Shown one piece after another: positions 27,247 through 49,238 of a stretch of 64,000 nt of DNA. This stretch comes from Favolaschia claudopus (taxonomy: Eukaryota > Basidiomycota > Agaricomycetes > Agaricales > Mycenaceae). Below the pieces are notes generated by a model. The model was not told the DNA's origin. It made no database searches and saw only the letters and a list, made by a program, of their open reading frames with translations. Each line of letters starts with the position of its first letter. Position 1 is the first letter of the stretch. The position numbers and the translations under genes were made by a program. The stretch spans positions 62,001 through 126,000 of the forward strand of contig JAWWNJ010000125.1 in assembly GCA_037176885.1 (NCBI GenBank). The letters are read 5' to 3'.

Positions 27247-27333
27247 CACTTTAGGCAACCCGGAAATGACCCTTCCTAGGGTCATTAATCCCCTTTGAAT
27301 AAAGGCCCTAACAGGGTCGAATCCCATGGGCCC
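27247..27333. repeat. Left terminal inverted repeat of the large element
   Basis: Ungapped inverted match to 49145-49231, strongest at AGGCAACCC, TAGGG, AATCCC, CCTAA and AATCCCATGGG. Confidence 0.85.
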
Positions 27334-27352
27334 CCCCACGGATCCCAAGTGT

Positions 27353-27786
27353 GGGCGGCCCCTTGACCTCCTTATTTTTAATGGGCGGCCCCATAGATGT
27401 TTGATTTGGGGCCCTCAAGGCATTCCATGGGCGGCCCCATCTCTCATTTCAAACATCTGTGGGGCCGCCCAAGGTATTTCATGGGCGGCCCCATCTCTCA
27501 TTTCTTTTCAGCGGTGGGGCCGCCCAATGTTTTAATTTATATGTGCTTGGGCGCTCCCACTTCAGTAATTCTTTCCTGTTGTTGGGCGCGCCCAATGCAA
27601 CCTTGCAATTCTATCTTGGGCAGCCCCAAGGTGGTATTGCGTTTAGGACATGGGCGGCCCCAGTGTTCAATTTATATTCCTCGCATGGGCGAGCCCATTC
27701 AGAGCCCGTCCTTATATGCTTGGGGCTGCCCAAGCATTATTATTGAATGCGCCTCGGGAACGCCCACTTATCTCTTGGGAGAGCCC
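27353..27786. repeat. Left subterminal array of GC palindromes (14 units)
   Basis: Ten-base GC palindromes start at 27353, 27383, 27429, 27461, 27483, 27516, 27549, 27584, 27618, 27652, 27687, 27722, 27756 and 27777. From 27483 to 27756 the spacing is 33-35 bp with AT-rich spacers of 23-25 bp that differ from one another. Units vary in both arms, for example GGGCGGCCCC, GGGCGCGCCC, GGGCAGCCCC, GGGGCTGCCC and GGGCGAGCCC, usually flanked by CAT/ATG or CTT/AAG. Confidence 0.9.
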
Positions 27787-28071
27787 AGCAAGCATGTCAT
27801 TCAAATAATTTGCTAGCACTACGGGACGAACGACCCCAATCATGTATATATAGGATAAATGATTAATCACTTTCACCTTAGACTGTAATCTTACGATGAT
27901 TGAATTCAGTAACACTCCCATTCGATACACCTTTTGCACAAAACATAAGACTTAGATAAATTCAAGTCCAGCGTGTAAAGTAATCAAACTCGTCAATGAT
28001 TAATCATTTGCCGCGAAGCAAGCTCGTTAATAATTTGTATTCCTAACTAATGCTCTGCCTCTGCCGCTGCT

Positions 28072-28929
28072 CTACATCCCAGAGCGCCGTTCATGAGTGA
28101 TAGTCAATATATGAGGAGGTGTCGGCGACATACCTTTGACCTTTGCAGCATATGCCCTAGCCTTGTCCCCACTCTCAAACACCTCCTCTAGCCGCTTGCT
28201 CAACGCGGCGTATTCCTCGTCTGTCTTCGCGGTCTTCTTGGCTTCACAGAGAGCCTCGATTTCGCACGATCGTCGCCACGCGACTTCTTGGTGTAGTAAA
28301 GGGCGTTCGTGGGCTTTGATACCGGCAGGCACGGGGCGCTTAAAGACGACTGAGACAAATCCGTTAGTTAATGAAAACGAACAGGAAAACGAAGATGAAT
28401 AAACGTACCGTTGTGTAGAGTACATCCCGTTCTTGCCCCATCACAAGCCATGCTGCCAGGTGGGCAGGTGCACTGCTGTACATCATCAAGTGTTGAGCGG
28501 GCCACGCACAGACGAACTCACCGGTGGCGGGGTATCCTCGCTTTCGACATAATCAAAGCGAGGGTTGAGTATGGTGTATCGCCAGCAGCCAAGGCAGATT
28601 TTGTGTATGACGACGAGATATGTTCCTTCAGAATCCCTCTTCAGGAAGTATTCGCCGAACGCCCAGTCGGGGACGACGAGGTGGCAACACTCGCATTTCA
28701 CGTTCTGTAGATGGGGCCCGTTCATGACGTTGAGGTCGTGCTCGGTGAGGTATATGACCAAGCGTTCGCCGAATTTGTTGGTGACACAGCCGATGTCGTA
28801 TCGTTGCTTGTCGTCCTTGGCCTGCTTGTTCAAAAATTGAACGATGTGCAAAAGAGAGGGATAAGGGAGGGAGTCGGCGTTGGCGTCGGCGTTGGGGTCG
28901 GATGGTAGGGTGAAGTGTGTGTGTGTCAT
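28072..28929 (-). CDS. Cys-rich transposon-borne protein of unknown function
   Basis: I do not recognise the family. Three minus-strand exons join as EDTPPP-VQCTCPPGSMACDG and TLHN-VVFKRPVPAG, giving roughly 245 residues. The first exon starts MTHTHFTLPSDPN with an Asn-Ala-Asp repeat. A central Cys cluster (VKCECCHLV, then KICLGCW, then CTCPPGSMAC and GC) could bind zinc. The C-terminal third is a charged helix (KTDEEYAALSKRLEEVFESG). It lies 230 bp downstream of the KDZ transposase on the same strand, inside the element, so it is probably an accessory protein. It could also be a terminal fragment of a larger KDZ-associated protein. Confidence 0.5.
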
Positions 28930-29161
28930 GATAGAGCAGGTGAAGGTTAGAGGAATACCTGTGGTGGACACGGTCAGTTTATATACGTTTTCCAAATGCC
29001 ACCCGCTCACCAATTGTTTACCCAAAACGGCAATGAGTGCTGCCACCATCCGTCGCGCCCATTGTTCTTGCTGCTCGCCGTGTTTGTGGTGAAGTTTAAT
29101 GAAATGCATTCAAACCTGTTTTACATGAATTTGTACGAAGTCTAGTAGTCTAAGCACTACA

Positions 29162-32100
29162 TCAGAAACCGAGGTCAAGATAGCTGTCTACAGTATTTTG
29201 CGCATACACCTCCGCCCTCTGAAACGCCTCAATATCTTCAATCGGCAGTTCTTCCTCCTCACCATCTGCTTCAACCTCCTCCTCATCATCATCATCGACA
29301 TCGCGAGCTACTGTCTTCGCATTCTTATCGTCTAGCCGTACTGCCCGCAACTCGTCATCGCTGGGTCCCCACGGCGGTAGACCCTCGAGCTTGAACGGGA
29401 TGCCACGGATCGCGGTTATCCAGGACGCGCATAGCTTGCATAGTTCCGTGCGGCGCAGCTGAAGCTGGTGTCTCAAACCGAAGTCGTCTGTTTTATATAC
29501 CGTATTAGCTTGTAGATAGGCGGCAGGCTACAATTAACGTACCGTTGTCATCCGCCTCAGCCATCGCCGACGCGACCACCTCCCATTCTTCCGCCAACCA
29601 GTACCGCAACGCCCTGCATTCATGGAATATGCGGACTTCCTCCTCCTCGCAGCGGTCGAGCTCCAGCATCGCCCTGATTCCACTGCGGACGGTGTCGTCC
29701 TTGAGCCACAACGGCGGCTCAGTGTCGTCATCCTCCTCGTCCAGCCCAACGTCTTGCCATATCTCGTCGTCGACGTCCAATCCCCAGATCGCCTTGGGAT
29801 CAATTGGTGCTGGCGGGATGCTGTTCTTTGGGGCCTTGCGCTCCTTGACGAGCTTCTTCATCTCTTTGCACAGAGTATTGTACTGTCGCACTAGAGTCTG
29901 TATGCTGGGATCGCGTCGAGCGACCGCATCTTCAATGTGAGTCTTTAGTTTGTGTTCTGCGTTTCGCCGTGAGCGCACGGATCGCATCAAGTGAGGAGAA
30001 CCATTCTCATACCTGTTTTCTTCTTCCGCCGATACGTTCGTTCCACCCTATCCAACTCAAACTTGCGAGCTCGCAGCTTCTCCCGCAGCCGGTGCTTGAT
30101 AGCGCGGGCGTTCATGCGCTTCGCTATGAACTTGCTCTTCGTCAGGTGCGCCAGGTTTGCGCGATCCTCAACGCCCAGCGCCTTCTCTTTACGCTTCAAC
30201 GTTGCCGTATCCTTCTTCAACTTCTCCCGCGCAGTCTTCAAATCCTCTTGAGCCCGCCTCACGTCCTCTGCATCCGCGTCCAAGTCCATCACCGTCTCTT
30301 CTAACCTGGTTATCCGCTTATTCAGCACGCCAACCGCCTGACGACGGCGTATAATTGCCTCGACGGCGAGTTTGCCCGCGGTTCTGCTACGTTCTGCGCC
30401 AAACGAAATCAAAAAAGGTTCATTAAGGAAGGACCTCAAGAACCATACGTACTAGGCAAAGGCTTCGTTTGTGCTGCCACCTGTTTTCGATGCTCCTCTT
30501 CAAGCAGCTCGCGCGAGTGCCCGCACTCGTCGAATAGTTCCGTCGCCTCTCGCCGCTTGTCTATCATATGGGCCCAGCGTCGGCCTAACCATGCTCCCAA
30601 ACGTCCTATGCTCGCGTTTCGCAGATGACGAATTTGAGTATCCAGCGTATACAGACGCCGATGGTACTGAAGGAGGCTTGAGTAGCTGCTCGCCAGATCC
30701 TGAAAATCAAGACCACTTACCCCACAGACCCGAAGGTACGCTATCAGCTTGCTAATCGAATGCCAGAACCGCTCGCACCCTTCGCCGTCAGACAGACCAA
30801 ACAGTGTCCGACGCCGAGGGTGATACTGCAGCTGGCAGACCCAATTGTGGCCGAAGGCGTGGAGGACAGAGACCGCAAATTCCATGCGCTCCATATACTC
30901 CGGGGGGAAGAAATTCCACTTCCTCAACGACCGCTCGAGCTGGCACACGATGTCGTACAGGAAGCCGACGACGAAGTTCCGGGGGAGATGGCTGAATAAC
31001 ATCTGCAGTAGTGCGAGCATGTTAGACTGCTTTTCTCCCGCGGATTTCATATTCACCACGAATAGAGGGTGGTCGTGCCTGCAGGTGAGAGCCATGAGCC
31101 CGGTGTCGTCAAAAAACCTGGTGCTGCTCTTGATTCTGCGCTCGTCAGCGGCGACGAAGGAAGACTCGCATTCGTCGAGCACCGACTTTGGTACTGGCAG
31201 CCGGGGGTCTTCGAAATGGTCATCCTCTGGCTCCCCGTCCTCGTCGCTTCCGCCTCTCGTTGTACTCGGACGGATGGACTCTACGTACGCGTCCATGGCG
31301 TCAGTCACCTCCGTCGAAACGAAGACAGAGGACGGATGCTGGTGCGCAGGATCCATGCACCCGTTCCCTATGTTTCGTCGCTGGGTAAAGCAGGCGTCCC
31401 CAGCGACGATCCCCGCGATCTTCATCGATGGATTCTCCCATTTCCCTCCGAAGCACGCTGGGCACAGCCAGCGTAGATATTCGCTCGGGCGAGTCCGCTC
31501 CTCCGGAAGGCTGAAGGGATAATCAGCTTGCGCGGGAGGTGGAGAAGACGACGAAGTCGATGGAGATGGAGATGGAGCCCGCTGGCGGCGGCGTTTGGAT
31601 GGTGACGCGGGTGGTGAAGAAGGTGGTGAGGAGTCCGGTGGGGGTGTATCGGGTCGTCTTCGTTTCGTAGGGGAGGAAGGTGCACTTGGTGCTGGTGACG
31701 ATGCAGGAAGCGGGGTATCGGCCGCACGCGGCGTCTCCGGTGCTTCCGCAGCTAATGATTCTCTTGCGGTCGATATGGCGGCATCGATTTTGGCGGCGGT
31801 CAAGTCACGCATGGCGGAATACCATTCTAGCGCGTTGCCAAATCGTCTTCGTAGTGCGTTCTGCTCCGCATGTTAGACCGTTTCAGCATGAGCCAGATAG
31901 TGCGCTTACCCTATTGCTTAACTTGTAACCCATATCGTCCAAGACTTCCTCTAAAGTCGTAGATATCGCGGTATTGTTTGGTGGCAAATTGAGGAATAAC
32001 TTCCTGGCGAATTCTAAGATATGCAAGCCGATCGCTACCGACGGCTCGAGCGGGGAACACGGGAAGAACCCGCGCTTGACCAGCTGAGAGGCCGCTGGGG

Positions 32101-32711: not shown

Positions 32712-32968
32712 GGCTGGAGGGAGAGGGAGTTGGTAAGTGTGAGCGGGGCCACTCAAACAATCAACGTTCTCACCTCGATTTCGTACTTCAAATTCTCCGC
32801 CTCCTCCCTCGTCTATATCTCTCTCATTCCATGTTAATGCGCATCCCAATATTATAGCGTATGTGTATGTATCGTATTTACAGAGACATCGTTGTATTAT
32901 TTTTACGCTGAACACTGTTTTCTACAATAATAGCAGGACATTATAACGATACAGTACAATATTTACAA

Positions 32969-33080
32969 GTGTCAAAGCGGGCAATGTGAAAGTAAAGGAC
33001 AAGAGGCAAATGCGCTTCGGTGGCACACAGCGCCAAACTTGATGAGCTGCCGGCGGACGAGGGCACGGAAGACCGCCTCG
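32969..33080 (-). repeat. Shared GC-rich leader repeat, copy 1 (upstream of the transposase)
   Basis: About 113 bp, roughly 93% identical to the inverted copy at 43952-44067. It contains CGGCGGACGAGGGCACGGAA. It lies about 260 bp upstream of the transposase ATG, in the same relative orientation to that gene as copy 3 has to the ORF at 44441. Confidence 0.8.
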
Positions 33081-33125
33081 GTCTTCCGCCTCGGTCTTCT
33101 CGGGCTCGGTCTTCTCGGGCTCGGA
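33071..33125. repeat. Short tandem repeat (CTCGGTCTTC type)
   Basis: Three to four tandem copies of a 15-18 bp unit containing CTCGGTCTTC, adjoining leader repeat copy 1. Confidence 0.65.
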
Positions 33126-33208
33126 CACCGAAAAAAACTCAAAGTCCTTCGTTGTTGAGCGGTGAAAATATTGGTCACATTATTCTGTACGGGAATACAA
33201 ACGAAAAA

Positions 33209-36200
33209 TTAAAGACGAGGGGTTGTACCGAATACTTTATCGCGTAGGGTAATGGACTGATTTTTGGCGAGGCACAAACTTGAAATATGAAAAAATCCCA
33301 ATTCTCCCTGCCCAAATTCTACAGCGACGACCTCAAAGCCGTGCGGGTGTTGAATGTGCGGCGATATAAAACCGTAGCACCCTCGTTTACTAAGGTCTTG
33401 GTTAACGTCGCCGCCGACGACAACCACCCGTTCCACCAACTCATTCAGCAAACGCCCATCCTCAGCTGTGCGGCACGGGCGGACGTACTTGCGCTCGAGA
33501 GGATGCTTGAGACCGCCCACCGTTGCCCCATAGACGTCAATCTTGTCCGCCTTTTGGATTTTCTTCAACTCTCGCTTCTTTGGACCGCGAGACGGGATGT
33601 CTTGCCCCACCAAAATGTACCCTCGCTTCCCCTCCAGCTCGCGGACCTTCTGTGCTAACTTCTCGACCTGCGCAACGCCCACGACGACCACATCCAACCG
33701 TTTCATCGCCAGGCCGGGAATACATAGCCATTCACCATCTTCTTCGCCTGAAAGAAGAAAAAACCGTCAGCTGAAAGGAAAATCACGCCTCGATTGGATA
33801 CATACCGTCGAGTCTGGGCTTGAGGGAGTCAGCGCACCAGAGCGGTTCACCCGAGGGAGTCGGGCAGGGCGTGAGCGGGCGCGGAGGCGGCGGTAGCGGC
33901 GGAAAGAGAGCGGTCTGTTGCTCCGTCGTTTCTATGACTTGGTTGCCGCGCAGGATCCTCTCAGACATGCCTCTCGTTTTCAGCAAAGGTACCATGGTCC
34001 TGGAAATAGACGGAAAAATTAGCAGATAGAAGCAAATTCAGTAGAAAAGCTGTTCATACCGTTCATGGACCACATCCTCAATTCGGATGTGCTGTACCGT
34101 CTCGCCCGCTTCTGCCTTGCGAAGTGTGAGCAGAAAACCCTCATGAACCTTCTCCGCTTGGGCCCGCGCGTTTTGTGCGCGCATGTCGATTCGACGCAGT
34201 CGTTCAGCCCGTTCGTCTTCCCTTGTGGAGAGTGCCTCTTGTCTCCGAATCTCAGCCCACTGATCTTCAAGACGTTGTAGGCGATCCGCGCGTTCCTGGC
34301 TGTTGTACACTCCCGTCACCCTTCCTCTAAACCCCTTCGTAACCCCGACAGCGATGACCAAGGCTTCCAATCCAATGTAATGCCTAGTCGCATCCTTGCG
34401 GGCACTGATAACGTCCAGAGCCTGGGCTGGCGATGTGGCATCCATTTGAATGTGCGCCGCTTGTTGGGGAACGGGGTCCACAGGGGCGTACGAGATCGTG
34501 TCGCCGAGAATGTCGAAGTCGATATCGGCGGCTCTAACCCGAAACTGGTGCAGTACTTGAGCTTCAAAAAAATGTATAGAATTTGAGTAACTCACGACGC
34601 GCTCTTCTTCCCAACGTTCATGACGCCCGGCTCCGTCAATGCGATCCAGCTAAGGTATGAACTTTTAGAAAATATTATTTGCGGATAATGGAGGGAATAC
34701 TCACATCATACAGTTCCACCATACCCTTTCGCTCATCTACCTTTACCACGTACCCCGCCCTGCGCTCATGATGGCCCCAGCGCACCCGTACCAGATCTCC
34801 CACTTCCCACACTCGTACAACGTCGTCCAAGACGTGCGCCGGGGAGCTGCCGAGCGCATCGCGCTCGAGCACTACTTGCGTCCCATACGAGTCGAACGAC
34901 TGTACACGACCGCCCTCCTTCCCATCAACCGTGCGCACACGATCGCCTACTTGAAAAGCGAAAGAAAAGTCGAGCGCGTGGCGCCGCAGATCCGTCGTCT
35001 CGAGATAAATCCCTGCTTCCAGCGAGTCCGGCAGGTATTCCCCGTCGTACGCGGGGATTACTCGCGCGTATTCCTTGCCGTCATTGACTTTCAGACGGGC
35101 TATGAACCCGCTCTGCCCCTTGTACTCCCCGGAAACCACCACCACTCGATCCCCAGGTCTGAGCGCGGGCGACATGTCGGTATGGATCAATCGCCGTAAC
35201 TCGACGTGGTTGCTGCGCGCAAAGACCTGCAGCTCTTCATAGCTCGCCTGCTCAAGAATACCTTGATATGCAGCGAGTGGCGTAGTTCTCGTGGCGGCGA
35301 GGAAGTCGACGGGGGTGAGCAGATGGACTTTATGGCGGGCTTTGGTGATGCGCAAAACGGGCGGTTTTCGATCAGGCGCAAGGAGGGTGTTGTCCGCGAT
35401 GACGAACGCCAGCCGACCCTTGTCTTTGCCCCATCCGAGGCGAACCCACTGGCCCTTCTTCAGCGGGTTCTTGACCTCGACCAAGGCGAGGGCGAGCTTT
35501 CGGGGGAGTCGGGAGTCGAGGGGAGCGTGCTGTGATCGATACGCTGCTAAGGCGCGCCCATTGTGGTGATTCTGGTCGAGCGCTGATTTGGGGCGGGGTG
35601 CGGGAGTCGCGCTGTGCACCGACGGTTGGTGGTGGATTGGGACTTCTCGGGTGACAGTCTCTTCTCGAACGACTGTCCAACCTGGAGGATACTTTATTAC
35701 AGTCGTATATGTCAATGATAAAGATGCACTCACCATGGTATTGTCCCATTTCAGCCAGCGTCTCCTTGCGATACTGAGCTGCTCTGCTTGCAATGACTTC
35801 CTGGATGCGGTGTTCCATGGCATCGTCGATCCTTGAGCGTTGGTCAGGCGGGGCGGCGCTGACGGAGTCCGGTTCCGGCGTGGTGGTGTCGATTGGATTG
35901 ATATTCTCTGAGTCGTCGAGGAAGTCTACAAACAAAGGTTAGGACCGAGTATGAGCCACCGTTACAATACGCACCCCGATCCGCTTGGGTTTCCTCGTCA
36001 TCCGAGTTCTCGCTCATTCCAGCCTCCTCCGCCTCCACATCCAAAAACCTACGCACGTCGCTGGCCTCGCTATGCGCCGCCGCCTGACGAAAACTTTGCA
36101 TGTAATCTTCTTCCTCGTCCTCCTCTTCGTCTCGTTCTTCTTCTTCTTCCTCTTCCTCTTCCTCTTCCTCTTCCTCTTCCTCTTCCTCTTCCTCCGCATC

Positions 36201-36761
36201 GTCGTCACGCGCGCCCAGCTGTGCCTCCATTCTTCGGCGCTTCGGGGGAGGAGGCGGCTAGATACCAGTCAGCATTTATATTCAATGAATCAATAATTAT
36301 TCAGACGAGACGCACCTCAAAAGAAGTGCTTTCCCAATCATCTGCGAACGGTGTCTCTCGAAGGCCTTGACCAATGTACGGCGTTGGAGCGCGAGAATCC
36401 GGGAAGAACAAGGGCGTTTGTTTGCGTATTTGAGAGGCTGGAGGAGAGGGCGGGTATTGATTCTCCAAGTCTTCATTCTGTAAGTGAGGCGGCGCTCCCC
36501 AGTACAGTCGTGGTCCGGAGGATGTGGATTGCTGTTCTTGTGCCTGGGGAGGGTCTGAGATGAGACTTCCGGGTGTTCCTCGCTGCCTACCTCAATACCC
36601 GAGTGGTCCGAAACGCCGTCTGCACTGTCGAGAGGTGGCACTGTGAAATTCGGTCAGTTTGTAGTCCACACGACAAAGCGACGCGGGGCTTACTGGGTGT
36701 ATCACTGTCTTGCATGGCTTGTATGTTGATGGATGGCGATGAACGTCTGGAAGCCGCCATG
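33209..36761 (-). CDS. Spt5-like KOW-domain protein carried by the transposon
   Basis: This resembles the transcription elongation factor Spt5 and bacterial NusG in domain type. About eight exons were joined. The N-terminus from the ATG at 36761 (MAASRRSSPSINIQAMQDSD) leads to a disordered region, then a poly-Glu tract encoded by a hexanucleotide repeat. Next come an NGN-like stretch (HKVHLLTPVDFLAATR) and at least three KOW-type modules: LRPGDRVVVVSGEYKGQSGF, FQVGDRVRTVDGKEGGRVQ and WEVGDLVRVRWGHHERRAGY. A further C-terminal module begins LEGKRGYILVGQDI. A helical arginine-rich region separates the last two. Host Spt5 binds RNA polymerase II with Spt4; whether this copy does is unknown. It sits upstream of the transposase on the same strand. 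Confidence 0.7.
36131..36196. repeat. Hexanucleotide microsatellite encoding poly-Glu
   Basis: Repeated TTCCTC units on the plus strand, read as Glu codons in the minus-strand Spt5-like gene. Confidence 0.85.
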
Positions 36762-37027: not shown

Positions 37028-37053
37028 CGGCGGACGAGGGCGCGGAAGGCCGC
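37028..37053 (-). repeat. Shared GC-rich leader repeat, copy 2 (upstream of the Spt5-like gene)
   Basis: Diverged copy of the repeat core CGGCGGACGAGGGC, in the same orientation as copy 1 and about 270 bp upstream of the Spt5-like ATG. Confidence 0.6.
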
Positions 37054-37850
37054 AGCCGCCGAGGCTTGATCATCAAGGGACGATCAACAATCATTAGCGC
37101 CGGCTGCCACTTGCTCTTGACAACCATGTCGGGAGTCGGTGGTGACCGAGCGGGCGGGATAATGAGTTAATGAGTGTGCTGGCGGGGAGCGCGGGTGGAC
37201 GATGCACGCTGAGAGCTTTGCACTAGTGTACAGTATGTGTTTTCTTGAGAGAAACTGACCCAAGTTAAATCAATACATGTCATTCAGCCCGACGACGAGA
37301 AAGGAGGCGGGGTGGGATAACGCGTCGGACACCTGTTCGTCTGCTGATACCATCTCCGCTGTGTCTGACCATAGGTGCTACAGGGATGATATCGCAGGGT
37401 GGCATAGTGGGGAACGGGATGAGCAACAAGCTGGCGGCGAAGTGCGTATTTGTCCCACAAACCTACCTTTTCTGATTACCGAGTCATTCAGGTCACTGCC
37501 GCCGTCGATGTAGCTCGCCCAGTACATGCTGCTCAAGTCGACAAATTGCTGAGGCCGGAGTTTCATCCAGGCAAGTCACCTTCGTAATATTGTTTCTCTT
37601 TCCTAATCTGGAATGTATATCGAGCAGCGGTGGAATCATTGGATGTACTCGACGAGTCTTGTTGTTAGATTTTCAACGGACGCAGTGTGCATGAGGGTTG
37701 GTCTGGGTTCGGTATCTTCTGCGAGCATGGAGCTAGAGGCACTGTGCGTGACATGGACTTGTGTTTGTTTTGGCCACATTCTCTCTAACCCACCTTAACA
37801 GCTTACTATCTGCACTTTCTTCTCAACACTCTCAACTCTCCACTTACCAT

Positions 37851-40800
37851 ATGGCTGGACGCGCTACTCGTTCAAGAACAAAAGCAGCGGCCGCCCCTAC
37901 GGTACGCCTCCTCGATGTCATCGGTATCACAAGCTGACTTCTCGTTGGAATCCTTCAGCCAACGGCACCAGTACAACCGGCACCGACCGCTGAACCACGG
38001 CGAAGGGTAGGTTTCATCGCGGAGTCTGACAAGGGTGGTGTGCTGAACTACTTTTTTCTTCATAGCATACCCGCGCCAACCCCATCGAAGAGAATGCAGT
38101 CGCTCCTAATGCCACCACAAACCAGGTCGGACTCCTTCAGTAATCCCATCTTTCCCTTTATTGACCATGCCACCAGACTGCGCGGCGTCGTGCACCCGCC
38201 AAGTCCGGGACAGGTCGCGGCAAAGTAGGTGCCACACTTTTCGAGGGTATATTGAGCTGAAGCTTCCTCAGAAATCTGCCAAGAAGAATAAGAATACCTC
38301 GAATGAATCGGATGAAGACGACGCTCCCCCCGTAAGTGCTGCCGCAAACGCAGCCGAGGCACCCAACTCACACTCCGTTAGAACGAGGTTCCGTCAAATC
38401 CTCTTGCCACTACGTCAGATTCACACCAAGGTGCACCGAGTAATGTATGTCTGATCCAAGTACTTCGCATTACCCTTTTCTTGACGACTTCGCCAGGAAC
38501 CCGCTCCAGCTGCAGCGGATGATGGAGATTCGGTGGATGAACGACCACCTACTCCTGTGAGCATGATCTTCGATAGCACATCATGAAGTACTAACAAGTT
38601 TTGGAAGAAACGGCCGCGGCGTCGGCCACCGCTCTCCACTTCCCCCCCGCCTCAAGACGTCGACGGTCTGGTCGCTTTTGGGAACGAGTTACAAGACGAC
38701 GCTCAGCTAGAAGACGAAGCTCGCCTACAAGACGAAGCCGAAGCCCGTACACAAGACGAAGCCCGCCTACTCCAGTTTCAAGAAGAATTCGAGGACGACC
38801 ATCCACTCCCTATCCACTCCGATGCTGAATTGGACGACGACACGTCCTTCGCGCTGCTGCATGCCGATGAAGACGATGTCGGCCAGCACCAACACCACCG
38901 TCCGCATGAGCCGGGAGGGCGGACGCTATGGGCGCTGATGCAAGAGACCGAACGGCGGCAACGCGAACCGGTCCCCAAGACGCGCCCTATGGGTCAGGTC
39001 TTCGACGAAGACGGCAAGTTCGTGCCTTCCATGAAGCCCCGCCCCTCCAGGCTCGTTCGGGAGGACAGTGATGACAGTCATGCGGGGGCTGACCCTGGAT
39101 TGGATGATTCTGGGGAGGACAGCGGGGACGACTACTTCGAAACTGAGAAAGCGAAGAAGGAACGGGAGCGGTTCTACGATGGCGACGTTGATGACGAGGA
39201 GGATGAAGAGTTGGCAGGAGAAGAGGAGGAGGAACCGGACGATGGGAAGGGGAAGGGGAAGGCGAAGGCGAAGGCGAAGAAGTCGCGGTCGAAAAAGGCG
39301 AGTGGAAAGGGGAAGGAGGCACCCAAGCGGACAGCAGGGAAGAGTTCGAAGGCGACGGCCGGGAGGGGCGCAGCAGAGGACCAGGGGACTTCAGGGAAGG
39401 GCAAGGGAAAGGCGACGATGCTTCCAACGGCATTGGAGGGTGACGGGTCCGATGTGGAGGAGGATTATTCGGGGAAAGGTCCTCTGCCCCATGCCTGCAA
39501 GGATGACGTGCAGGCGGCTGTGGATGCACTCCACGACGAGCTCGTTCAGCTGGCCCGGAAGTACAATCGGCCTGTGGAGAACCTCCGCAAATTGGCTTTC
39601 GGGAAGCCGACCGTTCCCCGTAAAAGACAGCGATGGAACATGTTCCAGCAATGGCGTGTCCAAGTCGGGGAGCGGCGAGGTGAAAACGGTACGACTATCG
39701 CAATCAGGGCGATTCTTTCTGCTAACCATTCAATCGCAGTTACCAAGGAGGAGTGGAACAAGCAATTGCAGAACGAATATCACGAGCGCCTCAACACTTT
39801 GCCCGAAGACCAACGCCAAGACGAGAAGGCACTCGATGAGCTATTCTCTGACGTTGTCGAGTGGCACGCCGACTATAAGCAGCGCATCGTCGACGAGCTG
39901 ATCCTCACCGGCAAGATGGATAAAGCGATGGGGCCGTACGTCAAATCGCTGAATCAGATTGTGAGTAATGTCCGCCCCGCTGGTTTCTCGACTTAATGAG
40001 ATCTTCCAGTCGACCACCGCATACAACGACCTCGATATTCAAATCTTCGGCTTTATTATCGACATTCATACACACAAGAGTTCTATGTGGGGAGGAACAC
40101 CAGAGTTTGCGGCGTGGCGGGCGGACTCTACGCTGGCCATCCACAGCCAGCTAGCTGACATGGCCGCCATCTACAGGTGGGCTGTTTCTTCCCCACCGCT
40201 CGTGCAACAAGCTGACGCGATAATATCAGAACTTTCAATATCGACTACCGCGCCATGGCTGCGGGGCACCTCGACTTCCCAAAACATACTTTGGTTCGTC
40301 GAGAGAAAGAAACTGCTCGCGACTTTGGACGGCGGCTCATCACGGAGTGCCTGCGTCGAGATCTAGGTCAGTACATATTCCCTGACAATGTGTACATGCT
40401 AATGAGGAATTCAGTGAGAACTCTTGACGACCCCGCCGTGAAACCCGAATGGAGTCTTCCGGAAATGGGGTTTCGACACAAAGTTCGCATCTCAAACTGG
40501 CCAGAGGAGTTGAGCGCGGAGAACGAACGTCCCAAGAAGGGGTGGAAGCCATCGGCGAACGCGGTCACAATCTTGTTGCCGCAGGCGATGAGGAAACTCG
40601 GTATGGTGTCCGGTGCTTCCGCTGCCAGCGCCGACGAGGACGATGATGCATCTGCTGCGGACGACGACGACGACGGCGACGGAACAGATGAGGAACGCAC
40701 CAAGAAATCCGCCAAGAAGCCAAAGCGTGTTGCGGACGACAAACTGTTTTGCATCGAGAGCTGGACCGAAGGCAAGTTGTGGCTTTCATTATGGTAACAA

Positions 40801-42008
40801 TTGACTGACCGGCACGAAATACAGCGGAAAAGGATCTCCCAGACGACGAGCAGGGTGATGTCGCTGTCTTGGTCACCGCCAGCGGCACGGAGCTGGTGCT
40901 TGTGTCGGACAGTCTCAAGTACGGGAAGCACTTGGAGAAAGCGGAACGCAACGAACAGGAGCGACAGAGAAAGGCGGCGGAAAAGGCGGAGAAAGCGGAG
41001 AAGAAGAAAACGGCGGCGAAAAAACCCACTGCGGGGAAGACTAGCCGAGGCGGGAAGATCCTACCTCAGCCCCCTCGGGATACGAATGTCTCCCGTGCCG
41101 TGCCACCCGCTGCTCCAGTCGCTGGACCGTCGAGAATGCCACCTCCGTCGGCCCCGCTCGTCCAGAAACGTTCTCGGGATGAGGTTCATCAAGTCCCGCG
41201 CCCTCTCGCTGGTTCGTCGAGAACGGCTGCGCCGCCTCCTGCCGCCACTTCCAGCTCGTGGCAAACAGCTGCAGTCCTTCCTGCTCCTCCTCGTCCACCG
41301 CAACGCATCCCCGCTTTCAGAAATGCGGTCGCCAGCTCGTCGAGAGTCCAGCTCAGTGCGACAAACGAGGCTTGGGGCCCCACGGGCCACACCTTCGACG
41401 GACACGCGGCGGACGACGGCTTCCAGACGTACGAGCCGGCGGCTGAGGATCCATACGCCATGCGTTCCGAGGAGGAACGGCCCACCAAACGCGTGAAGAC
41501 AGAGCACCAGTTTGGTTCTGGGACGGAACACAAACGCAAAAGAGACGAAGAACTTCCCCTCACGACGCCGCGACCCTCACCTCCTCCCCGCGCTCCCTCA
41601 TCACCTGCGTACCCCTCCGAAATCTACAATCCTCGCTTCTACGAGAGCGAGGGGTATCCACGCGGCTGCGTTGGTGCCTATTTTCCATCAAGACTTCCAA
41701 CGCTGGACATGTCAGCTGGCGAGCGACTAGAACGATGTTGGTTCGCAATGCCAGGCACCATTGAAAGAAGACAAACGCGGTGCCGCTACCAGAGCGCTAA
41801 GAAAACCAGCAAAGAGTTCTACGTCAACAAGTTCAAAGTACGGGATCCCGATGATGACCCCGAAACGGACCTTTTGGCGTCGTATCTCTACAAATGCACC
41901 CCCGACGGCTGGTTTCCAGTGGACGAGAGGCTCGTGCCCTGCGAAGTGCCGAAGCACCGTTACTACCGCGAGGATATTGAAAACGATTTCTTAGAACCCG
42001 TCGAGTAG
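37851..42008 (+). CDS. Large charged transposon-borne protein of unknown function
   Basis: No certain domain. Several small N-terminal exons (MAGRATRSRTKAAAAPT first) join to a long exon beginning near 38610. The protein is about 1,000 residues. The N-terminal third has a QDEAR-type repeat, then alternating acidic and Lys-rich tracts resembling a chromatin-associated tail. A folded central region contains VQAAVDALHDELVQLARKYN, the segment RKRQRWNMFQQWRVQVGERR and a domain with WHADYKQRIVDELILTG. A further region reads FGFIIDIHTHKSSMWGG and HKVRISNWPEEL. The C-terminus is Pro/Ser-rich and ends FLEPVE. It resembles proteins found repeatedly around basidiomycete transposons and may bind DNA or target the element. 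This is inference. Confidence 0.6.
38690..38770 (+). repeat. Short in-frame repeat (about 24 bp, Gln-Asp-Glu-Ala)
   Basis: Diverged tandem copies of a unit with AAGACGAAGC encode repeats of the type LQDEAR within the large charged protein. Confidence 0.6.
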
Positions 42009-42701
42009 TTTTTGAAATACGTCTTGTCGAATATAATCGTGTAATCTCTTGTATGAAAGACAATTTTCTCATCTATACGCCTGAAACGAGCTTCTGTGAA
42101 ATTGAAAGAAACAACACCTTGAGGGTTACGATGGCAGAATGGGATTGGATTCTTGGTGCGTCAGCATTAGTTTCTTTTCACTTGTTCTTTCGTTCATTAA
42201 TACAAGTCTTATCTTAGGAGTCTTCCTCGACTTGAATACGAACTTCAAACGATTCAACGCTGGCTCAAATGGAGGCGAATTTGTTGTTGGGAGGTGAGTA
42301 GTGTCCGTCTCTGTTCATCTCATGAGGTCAAGTAGCTCGATTTGACGACATTACAGTTACTTTATCCACCTGTAGCCTCGCCGCAAGCTCTACAGCAACT
42401 GCGATACAAGGCGCATCGTTCATGCAGTATCATAGTGAACCTTCTTTTGTTCTGATCTCCTGTTGGTTGAACCTAATCTATTTCACGATAATCATACTGA
42501 ACGCTACAAGTTTACATTAATGGCAGGTAAGAACGATCAAGAACCCATCGAAAGAAAAAATAACAAATCTACAGAAGTAACTAAGATCGTGTGCAAGGAA
42601 TGAAATCTACAGACAGTACGTATAACAATCAAAAAAAGAGGAAGAGACGGCAGCTACAGCACGAAAGGTACATGAAAAGCAAGGGTGAGTGAGAGTTAAA
42701 A
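42009..42701. other. Intergenic inside the element
   Basis: Between convergent genes; AT-rich, no coding exon recognised. Confidence 0.5.
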
Positions 42702-43225
42702 CTACATATCTACTATATCCCTCAACAAGCGCGTCAGATTAAGCGCCTTCGTGATTCCCCCAAACCGCCCGACCTCAAACTTCTCGCGATGGAAAACGCG
42801 GCACGCCTCGCACGCGCTGGGCACCTTCCAGGCGTCGCTGGTCTTCAAACACAGGTGGAGACACCGTTCTTGTATGTAATTGGGAAAAAAAACCAAGAGA
42901 TAAATGAGAACTCACCTAGTTTTTTAGCATACCGTGTGCGGACTTTGTCGACAACGGTAATACGGCAACCGGGGCATTGGCGTCGCCATTGGCGCAGGCG
43001 CCGCTGCATGTTGTCGGTCCGCCCCGCCTTCCACTCCACAAGACCGCTGCGGTGCTCCATCTTCAACCAATAAACAAGGCCGGGGCGATCGGAGCGGGAC
43101 GGGCGCGCGGCGAGCACATCGTAAACGCGGCCTAGGGTGTAGGTGGTGAAATATCGCGTCGATTGGTGGCGGGGCAATTGGCGGGCGACGCGCGCGAGGA
43201 GGCGGGCTGCGCACTGAGGGCTCAT
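42702..43225 (-). CDS. GIY-YIG/T5orf172 (DUF1766)-like protein 1
   Basis: This is a small protein of the GIY-YIG-related T5orf172/DUF1766 type. Two exons join as YAKKL-ERCLHLCLKTSD across an intron near 42870-42915. Visible landmarks are LVYWLKMEHRSG (GIY-like strand), WKAGRTDNMQRRLRQWRRQC (the conserved K-GRT-N-RRL-QW pattern), a Glu-His pair (ERCLHL) and CEACRVFHREKFEVG, matching the family's C-x2-C-x2-H-R-E-W/K-F signature. The length, about 157 residues, is near a single domain. Such domains cut or bind DNA in other contexts, and here activity is untested. It lies in the element between the charged protein and the 44441 ORF, on the minus strand. Confidence 0.65.
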
Positions 43226-43951
43226 AAGAATGAAGAGGTGAGTTGGCTTACCTTTCCTCAACGACGTACTCATGCAAAGAATGAAGAAGAAAAGAGTTGT
43301 TGGATGAGGTGCGGGAGAGTAAGAATGATGAGCGGGATGGTCGGGATATGCGCGTGTATGCGCGTGTATGTTGTCGGTGTGGCGAGCGCGAGACGGCGGG
43401 AGACGAGAGAGACGGTCAAGTGAGTTGAAGGGAACTTGGGTATACCTACATATGCGAGCGCGTCGCGTCGCGATCCTCGAATCTATTTGCTTGCCAGCTT
43501 GTTTTCTCTACTTTGAATCTGGATATGATTACTGTCTACTTCGCGTTCAATACAGGCAAGTAAGTGATCTCTTGATTCGACTCGATGCATTCTTGAGCGG
43601 TGTAATGTTACTTAACAAGTTTTTCTTTGGTTGGGGTACTGGCTTGGTGCATTGAGCTTGAAGAGTAACCAAATAATTGTCGTCTCTCGCCCTTGCTTGA
43701 ACACTTGACTTATTCATGGCAAATTGCATGACTTAGTTACTTTCATCGATTTTGTGTTGACATTCGCAGTCAAGACTGACCTTGTGTGCACGTTTACGCG
43801 AAGCTAACTGACCCTTTCATTGTAGTACTTTATTACGCACCCACTGCATCCATGCGACGCGTCTCAGACACCGACCACACCGACGCGACGCGTCTGAGAC
43901 CGCGCGGACGCGGTCAGCTGACTGAGGCGGCCGACCGAAACCCGAGGCGGG

Positions 43952-44067
43952 AGACCGCGGCGGTCTTCCGTGCCCTCGTCCGCCGCCAGCTCATCATGTT
44001 TGGCGCTGTATGCCAACGAAGCGCATTTGCCTCTTGTCTTTTACTTTCATCTTGCCCGCTTTGACAC
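43952..44067 (+). repeat. Shared GC-rich leader repeat, copy 3 (upstream of the 44441 ORF)
   Basis: Inverted relative to copy 1, with about eight differences in 113 bp. It ends at TTGACAC about 370 bp before the ATG at 44441. Confidence 0.8.
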
Positions 44068-44440
44068 TGATATAAATTACAGCTATGTATCGCTTCAACT
44101 CGGCTGGTCGTTGTAGAGTTCATCGTAATTACAACAATAATATAATCTGCACATCGAAATCCGTATTAAGAGAGATAGATAGACAAGGATGCAGAGACTC
44201 GCAACTGTAGAAGCGCGAATCTGAGGTGAGGACATTCGCGCCTCTACTGATACCTACGGACTAATAAATCTCTTCACATGCATCCAGGTCGTCGGCCGAT
44301 ACTCAAAGCTGAAATGGGTGGCAGAACGGCCACCACATTGTTTGGCCCAAAAGGGAAATAGACGGTACGCAGGCGTCGAGCATTTAATACAAGGTCAGCG
44401 TTAGGTCGGGGCATCGCCTGTCTCTCCCCTCTGAACACTC

Positions 44441-45313
44441 ATGCCCGCCGATCGCACCTCAAAGCCCGCCGCGTCCTCCCGGGCTGACTTGAAGAAGCGC
44501 AAGGACCACGCCTCCGACCCCGCTGCACGGAAGCGCGCTGCGACAGCGAGGATTGATGCCCTCGAGAAATTAATAAGTGAGTGGTGATAGACTCCAATGT
44601 TTTGTTAGTTGCGGGGGTGCTGAGGAGATCTACAGAAACCAATAACCCCGTCACCATATCCGACCACGTCCGCGATTTCACCACGGCCGTAGCGCGGTTC
44701 GCGATCGATTTTGATGTACCGTACCGGTCCAAGTCTACCGAGAGTGCGCAAGCCCAGGTGCGCGTCAAATGCGCGATGATTCGGCGCTTCGACGAAATCC
44801 TCAAGGCTCACCGTTCGAACTACATGTCGTTGATGGGGGGAGGGCGGGAGTCCGAGACCCTCGTCATAAACCCATTCCGCCTCGACGACCCGCGCCGTTT
44901 GGAGTTTGACGTTGAGTGTCCGTTTTCCTTCTGCCTATTTCATGAGGCATGCCTGATTGTTTTTTTTTGCCGCTGTTCAGTGCGAAAGCTCGTTGCCGAG
45001 TGGCAAGACGTTCGGATGGACACCCTGCCACCGTTCGACGATCATAAGGGGATCATGTTCAAGATGCCCAACGAGTTTTGGGCGGAGTGGCCCAAAACTG
45101 ACGCGGGTCTCGCACGTTGGCTGCAAAGTATGTCCATTTCATTCATCTTTGCTGAATTATTTGACGAGTTGCTTAATAGTTTCCGTGTACGAGAAGACTT
45201 TGAATACGTTGCAATACGACACCATCGTTGCCGCCAAAATTCGGGTGCCGTCCGTGATGCCACCGCCGCGTGCGTTTCCAGAGAGTGAGACGCTTCGGGA
45301 GTATTTTTTGTAA
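44441..45313 (+). CDS. Transposon-borne protein of unknown function
   Basis: No known domain. The start MPADRTSKPAASSRADLKKR is basic. The exons join as ALEKLI-KTNNPVTISDHVRDF, then EFDVE-VRKLVAEWQDVRMDT and LARWLQ-ISVYEKTLNTLQYD. The product is about 230 residues with a likely helical core (VRVKCAMIRRFDEILKAH). Its ATG follows leader repeat copy 3. It lies inside the large element, between the two GIY-YIG-like genes. Being predicted in a single frame per exon with proper splice sites favours a real gene. Confidence 0.5.
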
Positions 45314-46242: not shown

Positions 46243-46808
46243 CTACAAGTAGTATCTGAAAGTTGTGAGTTGCAGAATAGATCAGAAATTCGACGAACTC
46301 ACCTATGAATTGGTTGCGCAGTATCAAAGAGCACCTCCTCGACTTCTCGACACACGTCCCCGATGCCCCAGCCCCAAAAGAACTCCCGGTGGGAATGCCC
46401 ACAGGGACAGGGAAACAAACCCACTGCAATTCCGCGCGAACGAAGACGCGCATGTATGACGGCTTCTACACACAGAAGATACGTTAAAAGAACCACAGGA
46501 AGAAATCGACGTACCAGTCAACTTAACACATTTTGTAGGCCAGGCGAATAACCAGTTCGTCGGGGGGCAGTCATCGTACTCGCTCATGCGCCGGGCGAGA
46601 TCGCTAGTCAAGCCGTATTTAATCCCCACATACCACACCCTCATCCCCCAATCGTAAACCCATTGCGCCAGAGCGTAAATCCACCCATCGCGTTCTATGT
46701 AGAGATTGCAGTCGAGTAGGTGGTCTGCACGGTACGCCGGATCGGCACGAGCGCTGGAAACTGTAAGTAAGTTCTCATACTACTTACTCCTACCTACAGA
46801 GCGTTCAT
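46243..46808 (-). CDS. GIY-YIG/T5orf172-like protein 2
   Basis: This is a second GIY-YIG-related protein, clearly different in sequence from the first. Minus-strand exons join as MNAL-SSARADPAYRADH, then CVKLT-EAVIHARLRSRG, then QPIH-RYYL before a stop. Landmarks are WYVGIKYGLTSDLARRMSEYD (GIY-like strand with the K-GLT-L-RRM pattern), a Glu-His pair (EAVIHARL) and PCPCGHSHREFFWGWG, the C-x-C-G-x3-H-R-E-F/W signature. The start at 46808 is chosen because it gives a short first exon with a normal intron. The protein is about 150 residues. It may be an endonuclease-like or DNA-binding accessory of the element; this is inference. Confidence 0.65.
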
Positions 46809-47090
46809 TCGGCGTTTTCGTTCAGGCTCGGAAAGCGGAGGCCATGGCGCTTGTGGGTAGCGAGGAACAACGGGACGAGAGTAAACAGCCGGCATAGATT
46901 GTGGTGGTAGAGGAGCAAGAGGGAAAGTTAGAGTGCGAGAAGAAATTTGGCTTTTTGTTCGCATCCGGCTGGAAACGTTCCGGACCGGGACAGGAAATTA
47001 GAACGCGTCAGTCACGGGACCGCGTCACTCGTTCTGAAATCCCGACGCCGCCTGAATCCCGACACGCGGCATTCCGTGGGCGAGGCGCGC

Positions 47091-47116
47091 GCGGCGTTCC
47101 GTGCCCTCGTCCGCCG
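47091..47116 (+). repeat. Shared GC-rich leader repeat, copy 4
   Basis: Core CCGTGCCCTCGTCCGCCG in the same orientation as copy 3. No gene was found downstream before the right palindrome array, so this copy lacks an obvious partner. Confidence 0.6.
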
Positions 47117-47614
47117 GACCGCAATCAAGCGATGTGTGTGTTTGGATCCAAAGCTCGTCGCTCCTTGTCTCTTACCACCATCTTCTTGCTTGAACTGTCA
47201 CTCCCGATTTCCTCGTCAACGAACTGAACTGCCTCGTCGATCTCGGTGTGTGTGTCAAGTCTTGCCCTACCTAACGTTCTGTTATACTCGGGTTATACTC
47301 GAGTTCGTATGTATCCTGATTCTCGGTTTTAACTTTGTCTTGATTCATTTTCCAAGCATCTCACTCATTCAAGACTCTTACGGCGCCGAATAAAACAATA
47401 GTCAGCTTCAACTACGGCGCCGATTCAAACAAACAGTGAGCTTTAACTTATTCCATCGAGATTCTACTAACTATATAATATACCAGTGCTTGTTTTTTTG
47501 GTACGATGATACGCTCGCTATACGAAGAGTACGAGTAAATACCTTGTGATGTAGTAATGATGTAGTAATGAAAAGTAATAAGAACTGGCGTCCGTCTGCG
47601 GTAGATTCCATTGT

Positions 47615-47982
47615 GGGCGGCCCCATGTCATGGCCGAACTCGAGCATGGGGACGCCCATGTAAAAGTTGATACTGGGAGTGGGCGGCCCCACGAAACAGA
47701 GTAAATGATGGGCGGCCCCAATCGTGGACGTGGGGACGCCCATATAAAATTATTATCGGAGGCGGGGGCCCCCATAGGACGACTCAATCATGGGTGGCCC
47801 CACTCGTGAACGTGGGGACGCCCATGTAAAAGTTGATACAGGGAGTGGGCGGCCCCACGAAACAGAGTGAATGATGGGCGGCCCCACTCGTGAACTTGGG
47901 GACGCCCATGTAAAGTTGATACCGGGAGCGGGCGGCCCCACGAAATAGAGTAAATGATGGGCGGCCCCAATTGGGCTCGCCC
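47615..47982. repeat. Right subterminal array of GC palindromes (14 units, 84-bp higher-order repeat)
   Basis: Palindromes start at 47615, 47648, 47681, 47710, 47732, 47764, 47792, 47814, 47847, 47876, 47898, 47930, 47959 and 47973. The unit GGGGACGCCC recurs at 47648, 47732, 47814 and 47898, giving a period of 82-84 bp. Each period holds two further palindromes, mostly GGGCGGCCCC. Unlike the left array, the spacers are repeated, with AAAGTTGATAC and CACGAAA recurring. Confidence 0.9.
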
Positions 47983-49082
47983 GAACTTGAATACGAGGCC
48001 CACGACTGTATGAAAAGTTTGACGAGTTTCATTCGGTGGTTTGAGCAAGTCTTCATTTAGTGCACTTTCGTTTTAACCAGACACGGGGTGAAGAAAATTG
48101 TAGTAATCAAGGCACTTGGGTGAATTGATAAGACTTAGGATATAATTAAACCCAGCATGGTCGGTTGTAAGGACGCAGTGGGTGCGAAAGACTCGTTCAA
48201 GACTCTTTCGTGGACTTTACTTTACTAATTACTTTATTTCACTCTACTTTGTTGTGTTGTTCTCGTTGAAGCAAGGTGAGATGTTCCTTTCCCGTCAATC
48301 TCTCTATTTACTCCAAGGCATTTAGGTGAACGGTATGTCTACTTTTTTGTAACGAAATGTAAATCTATGGGTGTTGGTTCGAATCCTGTGGCCGTAGCCC
48401 TCATTGTAGGATCATCACCGTAACTGTATTAGGTTTGATTTGGTTGATATTGCGTGTTCAATCAATATTCATGATGTGAGTAAGGGAGAAGTTCGTTGAA
48501 ATATGTTCAAAAAAATTCGCAAAAGGTGATGAATGAGATGTGATGAGATCCCACTCATCTTGCTGTCGACAACACATACTGTACTTATATTAACCTATAC
48601 AGTCATTGCAAACTGTAGTGTGCAAACCATAGCGAAAATACACTATATACTGACAAAATGTGCACAGCTGTAACAATAAATTTGTAACCGTATACAATAC
48701 CAGGTGTGAATATACTACCCTGCGATATACGCACATTTTGCCTGATATTACTGTATGATCACAGTCACAACGTCCAGTCATTGCCCATGCAAGAGATAGG
48801 TATATCTTGCCTTTTGATCTTATGAGCACCTATATACATCTGGCACACAACTGCCGCAGTATGTGTATTGCCCCAGGGAGCACGAGGGAAATGAGAAAAC
48901 TCAAAGCCATGATATTTAATTGCTATCTACACAGAAAAAATGACCAAAATCATAGCTCCAAGAATCACTTGCAACCATGAGAAACGGTGCAGCCAGCGAG
49001 CTACCGCGCAAGAAATATCGTGCGGACCCCCTAATAAATTACAGTCCCAGGGGCTGCTGAAGCACCCCAAAACAGACGAAAT
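47983..49082. other. Non-coding stretch inside the right end of the element
   Basis: AT-rich, no gene recognised, between the main right array and the inner palindrome cluster. Confidence 0.5.
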
Positions 49083-49165
49083 GGGGCTCCCAAAGCACAA
49101 AACTATCGTGCTATGGGCTGCCCCACAAGTCGTATACCATGGGAGGCCCCATGGGATTTGGGCCC
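49083..49165. repeat. Terminal palindrome cluster at the right end
   Basis: GGGGCTCCC at 49083, GGGCTGCCCC at 49115, GGGAGGCCCC inside CAT..ATG at 49141 and GGGCCC near 49160. It overlaps the right terminal repeat. Confidence 0.75.
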
Positions 49166-49231
49166 TTTAGGGTATTCATTCGCCTGGGATTGATATCCCT
49201 AACTTGGGGTCTTTTGGGGTTGCCTGGGGTG
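49145..49231. repeat. Right terminal inverted repeat of the large element
   Basis: Inverted, ungapped counterpart of 27247-27333. Read inward it starts CACCCCAGGCAACCC. Confidence 0.85.
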
Positions 49232-49238
49232 CACTCAC
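49232..49238. repeat. Target-site duplication, right copy (CACTCAC)
   Basis: Direct repeat of 27240-27246. It immediately follows exon 1 of the DUF6534 gene on the minus strand and supplies that exon's GTGAGTG donor. Confidence 0.85.

What the first reader, a model, noticed from the sequence alone, without database searches (positions are those of the whole stretch)
27247..49231. A 22-kb cargo-carrying KDZ-type transposon with defined ends
The ends were found from the sequence: an ungapped, imperfect 87-bp inverted repeat, a perfect CACTCAC duplication and an interrupted host gene. Between them lie a KDZ-type transposase and at least six other ORFs, including a Spt5-like KOW protein and two GIY-YIG-like proteins. 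Size, gene content and subterminal palindrome arrays make it look like a complete self-mobilising cassette, not a simple transposon. KDZ elements are known in fungi, but I know of no description of this gene set and end structure.
Basis: partly seen in the sequence, partly recalled or inferred. Interest (0 to 1): 0.95.

Follow-up and report, generated by a model that had tools for sequence, protein, structure and literature searches.

The report
Mushroom transposon with shuffled gene modules
A wood-rotting mushroom genome holds a family of roughly 20-kb DNA transposons that carry, besides the transposase gene, the same few extra genes again and again, with a short DNA motif in front of several of them that a genome scan found only in these elements, so the elements likely switch on and trade their own helper genes as modules.

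Summary
The finding holds. Bases 27247-49231 are a 21,985-bp DNA transposon with imperfect TIRs (59/87 matches), a 7-bp duplication, a KDZ transposase and subterminal palindromes. The host is Favolaschia claudopus. Four more paired-end copies exist (three of 22 kb, one of 41 kb), each with its own 7-8 bp duplication; for three of the five sites the genome also has unoccupied look-alikes (74-92% identical).

'Cargo' is the wrong word: the extra genes recur. KDZ transposase, Spt5-like KOW protein, a 253-aa protein and a GIY-YIG nuclease lie together at 15 loci, including families whose transposase is only 46-53% identical. A motif precedes the KDZ, KOW and 253-aa genes; its 78 near-matches in 264.6 Mb are all in or beside element loci (reversed control: 0). 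Genes of one element pair differ strongly in divergence (dS 0.11 to 1.48), and a two-gene block is inverted between copies, so modules are exchanged and flipped.

7-bp duplications and CA..TG ends fit Kyakuja, but the Kyakuja families described are said to lack TIRs. My paper searches listed no description of this gene set. Present mobility, promoter function and helper roles are inferred.

The parts
27240..27246 (.). left 7-bp target site duplication CACTCAC
27247..27333 (+). left terminal inverted repeat, imperfect (59 of 87 matches to the right one), begins CAC
27327..27732 (.). left subterminal array of TGGGCGGCCCCA palindromes (6 exact), predicted transposase-binding region
28072..28947 (-). 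predicted Cys-rich protein gene, 3 exons, about 250 aa, no Pfam match
   Evidence: dN/dS 0.66 against C188
29162..32711 (-). KDZ transposase gene, about 1060 aa, with Cys cluster; the 1065-aa database protein P0001 maps along it
   Evidence: KDZ E = 3.5e-53; mapping; D396, D544, E601/E604 of P0001 invariant or nearly so in an alignment of 24 sequences
32958..33099 (-). arm 1: promoter-like repeat before the KDZ gene, 89% complementary to arm 2
33051..33076 (-). 26-bp element motif before the KDZ gene
33209..36760 (-). Spt5-like KOW protein gene, 9 predicted exons, 1020 aa
37028..37053 (-). 26-bp element motif before the KOW gene; C75, C126, C131, C188 and C206 also have a second, opposite motif here that this copy lacks
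37785..42008 (+). large protein gene ('BIG'), about 1200 aa, start uncertain, unknown fold
   Evidence: P0118 maps here
42101..43880 (.). 1.8-kb stretch with GIY-YIG gene 1, absent at this place in C206 and C188
42702..43273 (-). GIY-YIG (T5orf172) gene 1
   Evidence: Pfam T5orf172 4.7e-10
43937..44078 (+). arm 2: promoter-like repeat before the 253-aa gene
43960..43985 (+). 26-bp element motif before the 253-aa gene
44441..45313 (+). 253-aa protein gene ('P254'), 3 predicted exons, unknown family
46300..46780 (-). GIY-YIG (T5orf172) gene 2, exon limits uncertain
47091..47116 (+). 26-bp element motif, no gene identified behind it
47614..47969 (.). right subterminal palindrome array (6 exact) within 82-84 bp direct repeats
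49145..49231 (-). right terminal inverted repeat, ends GTG
49232..49238 (.). right 7-bp target site duplication CACTCAC

Best explanation
The stretch is a KDZ-family DNA transposon with both ends present, one of 14 such related elements found in this genome, which likely moves by transposase-driven cut-and-paste and whose recurring helper genes are predicted to be expressed together from an element-specific promoter motif. Shown: matching ends, 7-8 bp duplications, near-identical copies at different sites, a recurring gene set, a motif confined to these elements in the scan, an inverted block and unequal gene divergence. Inferred: the transposase pairs the ends through the TIRs and the palindrome arrays and makes 7-bp staggered cuts; the repeat carrying the motif works as promoter and leader of the KDZ, KOW, 253-aa and (in other copies) BIG genes; recombination between these inverted repeats flips the block between them, and recombination between elements swaps modules. 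Guessed: the Spt5-like KOW protein keeps the element transcribed in silenced chromatin, and the GIY-YIG nuclease makes breaks that favour its own copying and the exchange of modules.
For: Ends and copies. Perfect 7-8 bp duplications in 7 of 7 paired-end elements checked, all different; 7 more paired-end elements found by their ends without a check of duplications. Unoccupied look-alikes for 3 of 5 sites. Gene set: KDZ, KOW, 253-aa and GIY-YIG genes together at 15 loci, KDZ+KOW+GIY-YIG at 4 more. Motif: 78 matches with up to 3 mismatches, control 0; 77 of 78 at loci with element genes, the last about 2 kb from an element right end in C36. Constraint, window against C188: dN/dS 0.15 KDZ, 0.28 KOW, 0.28 BIG, 0.38 253-aa, 0.10 GIY1, 0.66 Cys-rich, no internal stops in the matched exons. 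Mosaicism: dS to C188 0.64 KDZ, 0.29 KOW, 1.48 BIG, 0.11 253-aa, with bootstrap ranges that do not overlap; to C206 0.005 KDZ, 0.007 BIG, but 0.27 KOW, 0.13 253-aa, 0.42 GIY1. Inversion of the KOW-BIG block in C188 and C206.
Against: No transcript, binding or excision data. The fifth motif copy has no identified gene behind it, the Cys-rich and GIY-YIG genes have none in front, and in the main family C copies (C125, C47, C60, C88) no match within 3 mismatches stands before KDZ. Of 24 KDZ loci at 44% identity or more, 5 lack the KOW and GIY-YIG genes: C23, C67:967762 and C75:1204632, and C205 and C71:1286127, which have KDZ and BIG only; some KOW loci (C161, C68, C96) have 253-aa and GIY-YIG genes but no KDZ match. 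The KOW match of this copy is weak (E = 0.0011) and the models of the KOW and BIG proteins are poor (mean pLDDT 40 and 35). The assembly largely holds two haplotypes (86.8% of BUSCO genes duplicated, PMC10905254), so some copies may be alleles and the C205/C206 pair may be one insertion. Gene models are my own predictions except where database proteins mapped.
Confidence: 0.77

Rival explanations
1. An ordinary KDZ transposon that picked up passenger genes; the extra genes do nothing for the element and the repeats are leftovers of nested insertions.
For: Gene order differs between families, one copy has a nested Gypsy-like insertion, the Cys-rich gene is weakly constrained (dN/dS 0.66), and 5 of 24 KDZ loci at 44% identity or more lack KOW and GIY-YIG.
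Against: The same genes recur with transposases only 46-53% identical; dN/dS is 0.10-0.38 for the other extra genes; the motif is confined to these elements in the scan.
Confidence: 0.16
2. The 142-bp inverted arms are ends of a separate transposon nested in the element, and the motif is its end sequence rather than a promoter.
For: The arms are inverted, 89% complementary and 11 kb apart, and the block between them is inverted in C188 and C206.
Against: The motif also stands as a back-to-back pair between KOW and BIG in other copies and once near the right end; no second transposase was seen between the arms in the ORFs given to Pfam; the 78 motif hits are all in or beside element loci.
Confidence: 0.08
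3. The GIY-YIG genes are independent homing genes that parasitise the transposons, rather than helpers.
For: A unit 91% identical over its main part sits at different places in the window's element and in C188; a 1.8-kb stretch with GIY1 is absent at that place in C206; in C75 this segment is 13% diverged while its left neighbour is 99.4% and its right neighbour 97.5% identical.
Against: 19 of 19 loci with both KDZ and KOW also have a GIY-YIG match, with strong constraint (dN/dS 0.10); no target duplication or clear insertion site was seen at the slot.
Confidence: 0.35

Closest known systems
Kyakuja DNA transposons (KDZ group) of Agaricomycetes, Kyakuja-1_LB and -2_LB of Laccaria bicolor (PMC12730594)
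   Same: KDZ transposase, 7-bp duplications, 5'-CA..TG-3' termini, an extra gene carried.
   Different: Those two are reported to have no TIRs and to carry a TET/JBP dioxygenase. Here there are TIRs (59/87; 351 bp at 92% in a family C element), no TET/JBP match in the ORFs and models given to Pfam, and KOW, GIY-YIG, 253-aa and BIG genes instead.
KDZ1, KDZ2 and KDZ3 of Cryptococcus neoformans (PMC12810828)
   Same: KDZ transposase with CxC1, TIRs, 8-bp (KDZ1) or 4-8 bp (KDZ2, KDZ3) duplications; shown to move.
   Different: About 9.2-11 kb, TIRs of 139-241 bp; in the passages I read only a transposase with KDZ and CxC1 domains is described.
Starships of Pezizomycotina (recalled, and the listing of PMC12134995)
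   Same: Large fungal elements with several genes that move as a unit.
   Different: Starships use a tyrosine recombinase captain; here the enzyme is a DDE-type KDZ transposase with TIRs, in a basidiomycete.

Membership tests
KDZ superfamily | KDZ transposase domain | tested here: met
   Pfam KDZ E = 3.5e-53, 181 bits against cut-off 26.6
KDZ superfamily | Cys cluster (CxC1/CxC2) before the catalytic domain | tested here: inconclusive
   P0001 CxC1 26.1 bits against cut-off 26.9; the database's precomputed annotation lists PF18802 for P0001
KDZ superfamily | conserved catalytic D, D, E | tested here: met
   D544 invariant, D396 and E601/E604 nearly invariant in 24 aligned sequences; the assignment as catalytic is mine
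Kyakuja | 7-bp target site duplication | tested here: met
   7 of 7 elements checked: six with 7 bp, one with 8
Kyakuja | 5'-CA..TG-3' termini | tested here: met
Kyakuja | no TIRs, as reported for the two Laccaria families | tested here: not met
   59/87 matches, 0 of 200,000 random pairs; 351 bp at 92% in a family C element
Kyakuja | transposase groups with Kyakuja in a tree | not tested
   no labelled reference sequences were at hand
Starship | tyrosine recombinase captain | tested here: not met
   no such domain listed for the 20 ORFs and the gene models scanned with Pfam; KDZ found instead

The most novel reading that the evidence does not exclude
A eukaryotic cut-and-paste transposon organised like a small phage: interchangeable gene modules, several behind a copy of the element's own promoter, including an Spt5-like anti-silencing factor and a homing-type nuclease, with a two-gene block that flips orientation by recombination between the promoters.
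Probability: 0.35. Interest if true: 0.85.

Novelty: new variant of a known kind. Interest (0 to 1): 0.66.

Why it matters
It would show that some KDZ transposons are not a transposase with stray cargo but carry a recurring helper set under common control, perhaps with a route other than TET/JBP for evading silencing. The near-identical copies, unoccupied look-alike sites and gene modules make this testable. Module exchange and block inversion within a DNA transposon family also give a way to watch how mobile elements assemble their gene sets.

Tried and rejected
Structure prediction of the BIG protein (3 sequences, mean pLDDT 34.6) and of a KOW protein (8 sequences, mean pLDDT 40.1) gave models too poor for fold searches, so none was run. 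BIG has no Pfam match and no PDB sequence match. A bacterial promoter scan is not meant for fungi and was not used. A search for TET/JBP in the genome (PF12851) did not complete, so whether other elements here carry TET/JBP is open. I considered that the arms are ends of a nested element and that the genes are passengers; see the rivals. That C47 holds the other allele of the window's site was not adopted: in C47 the nearest family C element starts about 467 kb from the empty site, in C125 about 20 kb from the insertion, so a paralogue is as likely. The C46 look-alike was not checked base by base (the alignment failed for it). Database searches scored only the 7988-7996 candidates sharing most words, so absence of BIG outside Favolaschia is weak evidence. 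In one search I clustered hits copied by hand: all 78 motif rows, but only 26 of 96 KDZ rows, 29 of 64 KOW, 18 of 31 of the 253-aa, 12 of 16 BIG and 22 of 52 GIY-YIG rows; left out were further exons of the same loci and most weaker rows, so isolated weak hits are under-counted. A first dN/dS run counted four short exons in two reading frames; it was redone with one frame per exon, leaving out short exons of unsure frame, and only those values are used.
Full report
Observation. The window lies in contig C125 (62001-126000) of a 264.6-Mb assembly. Proteins of the element match Favolaschia claudopus records on contigs whose lengths equal those of C131, C75, C188 and C205. The genome paper, of which I read the first of two parts of the text, gives 265 Mb, PacBio reads and 86.8% duplicated BUSCO genes (PMC10905254), so I take it that two haplotypes are largely present.

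Ends. The element is 21,985 bp. Its TIRs match at 59 of 87 positions, against a maximum of 42 in 200,000 random pairs. The flanking 7-mer CACTCAC is exact. The left end has 7 hits in the genome, the right end 10, of which 6 at 99-100% and 4 at 74-76%. Five family A copies have both ends: C125 (window), C131 (22,004 bp, duplication TCCTAATC), C126 (22,097 bp, CTACAAG), C75 (22,027 bp, AAACGGT) and C206 (41,196 bp, GAGAAAG). C205 shares the left flank of C206 and runs to its contig end. C164 has only a left end and C17 only a right end, with the same 7-mer TCCGAAC beside them.

Unoccupied look-alikes. With the flanks joined, matches span the junction for 3 of 5 sites: the window's site in C47 (90%) and C46 (84%); the C126 site in C157 (92%) and in C68, C63 and C34 (74-76%); the C75 site in C115 (78%) and, less completely, in other places. 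The C131 and C206 sites gave only their own flanks. The C47 locus aligns over 3 kb with one copy of the site, which reads CACTCGC, one base off; in C157 it reads CTACAAA, also one base off. These may be alleles or paralogues.

Genes. My spliced predictions give, left to right: a Cys-rich protein (-), KDZ transposase (-), KOW protein (-), BIG (+), GIY-YIG 1 (-), a 253-aa protein (+, called P254 from its length with the stop), GIY-YIG 2 (-). Pfam supports KDZ (3.5e-53) and T5orf172 (4.7e-10) in this copy, the second GIY-YIG gene only in a hand-joined reading (7e-7), and KOW weakly here (0.0011) but clearly in a relative (P0123, 6.6e-8). A profile of 8 KOW relatives finds Spt5 chains in the PDB at E = 6e-4 to 1e-3, followed by ribosomal L24 chains. 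No Pfam domain at the curated cut-off was found for BIG, the 253-aa or the Cys-rich protein, and no PDB sequence match for BIG. The protein P0001 (1065 aa) maps along the KDZ gene.

The set recurs. Exon searches of the genome with KDZ, KOW, 253-aa, BIG and GIY-YIG 1 give 15 loci where KDZ, KOW, 253-aa and GIY-YIG genes are clustered, and 4 more with KDZ, KOW and GIY-YIG. Family B (C188 at 258-272 kb, C67; KDZ 83%, BIG 43-44%) and family C (C125 at 140-149 kb, C47, C60, C88, C192, with C188 at 53-62 kb and C244 as a subgroup; KDZ 46-53%) are the main ones. Against a perfect set: of 24 KDZ loci at 44% identity or more, 5 lack KOW and GIY-YIG (C23, C67:967762, C75:1204632; C205 and C71:1286127 with KDZ and BIG only), and C161, C68 and C96 have the other genes without a KDZ match. 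The C188 family B element is 20.8 kb with the duplication GAAGGTG. A family C element just downstream of the window, C125:131656-151394, is 19,739 bp with TIRs 92% alike over 351 bp and the duplication CTAGGAA. Its TIR finds seven more paired-end elements (C60, C47, C88, C8, C192, C188, C244; 18.6-20.8 kb except C192 with 42 kb). With the five family A copies, C188 family B and the C125 family C element this makes 14. Duplications were checked in 7 of 14 and found in all 7. Because of the haplotypes some of the 14 may be alleles.

Outside Favolaschia, the transposase has relatives of up to 57% identity in Mycena and more distant ones in other mushrooms (117 proteins in all, some from F. claudopus). 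The KOW search gave 8 proteins, 7 from F. claudopus and one from Mycena epipterygia (29% identity; compared). That Mycena protein and a Mycena KDZ protein (P0057) are both on contigs of 189,746 bp, so probably the same one; I could not read it. The BIG search gave 3 proteins, all from F. claudopus.

Motif. A 26-bp sequence stands 340 bp before the KDZ start, 268 bp before KOW and 456 bp before the 253-aa gene, pointing at each; a fourth copy near the right end has no known gene behind it. C75, C126, C188 and C206 and C131 have a fifth, back-to-back with the KOW one and pointing towards BIG in the window's arrangement, which the window's copy lacks. A 25-base core has 78 matches with up to 3 mismatches in the whole genome, against 0 for the reversed control. 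77 of 78 are at loci with at least one element gene, and the last, C36:1727102, is about 2 kb from an element right end. In the main family C copies (C125, C47, C60, C88) the matches stand before KOW and the 253-aa gene but not before KDZ. The repeat around the motif is 142 bp long and 89% alike before KDZ and the 253-aa gene. That it is a promoter is inferred from position only.

Mosaic and inversion. Against C188, dS is 0.64 for KDZ, 0.29 for KOW, 1.48 for BIG, 0.44 for the Cys-rich gene, 0.11 for the 253-aa gene and 0.19 for GIY-YIG 1; the bootstrap ranges of KDZ, KOW, BIG and the 253-aa gene do not overlap. Against C206 it is 0.005 and 0.007 for KDZ and BIG but 0.27, 0.13 and 0.42 for KOW, 253-aa and GIY-YIG 1. 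One shared history does not readily give this. The KOW-BIG block has opposite orientation in C188 and C206 compared with the window, with break-points at or near the motif repeats; the gene coordinates of C67 show the C188 order, and those of C17 the window's order. GIY-YIG 1 lies after BIG in the window's type but after the 253-aa gene in C188 (90.7% identical over 1.1 kb). In C75 the GIY-YIG 1 segment is only 86.7% identical to the window's, and 47186-48895 also differs.

Palindromes. TGGGCGGCCCCA occurs 12 times exactly, six in each subterminal region, and not in the other 42 kb of the window. I take them as transposase-binding sites by analogy with subterminal repeats of other transposons (recalled).

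Comparison. PMC12730594 (abstract, passages and sections 10 and 34 read) gives the two Laccaria Kyakuja families 7-bp duplications, CA..TG ends and no TIRs, with TET/JBP genes. PMC12810828 (passages read) gives Cryptococcus KDZ elements of about 9-11 kb with TIRs and 8-bp or 4-8 bp duplications. Searches for Kyakuja, KDZ with transposon, basidiomycete and cargo, KDZ transposase with GIY-YIG and KOW, Favolaschia claudopus, Zisupton (25 of 65 papers listed), Mycena with KDZ and cargo genes and KDZ with Agaricomycetes, TIR and GIY-YIG listed no paper whose title or abstract start describes this set; I read into three of them only, the library lacks most subscription journals, and the founding KDZ paper (recalled) is not held.

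Verdict. The boundaries and unit status are right. The interesting part lies beyond the finding: a recurring, regulated-looking and shuffled gene set rather than a one-off cargo load.

Noticed in passing
C206, loci L026-L028 (nested in the 41-kb copy): About 20 kb inserted between the KOW and BIG genes holds a predicted 2251-aa Gypsy-like polyprotein and a 964-aa protein with a Cys cluster; a similar pair lies in C164.
   Followed up: partly
C266:131998-137135, C49:1551978-1557113, C387:27411-32575, C69:628404-637934: Stretches of 5.1-9.5 kb with inverted ends 80-81% like the family C TIR tips, perhaps shorter or non-autonomous relatives.
   Followed up: no
window 37028-37053: The window's copy lacks the second motif of the back-to-back pair present in C131 and other copies, which may lower expression of its BIG gene.
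   Followed up: partly
proteins P0106-P0111: In other mushrooms some KDZ transposases are annotated with PF02902 (a Ulp1-type protease domain; name partly recalled) in the same protein.
   Followed up: no
C205:297196-309927: The end of this contig repeats the C206 insertion with many small gaps, probably an unpolished duplicate of the same locus.
   Followed up: no
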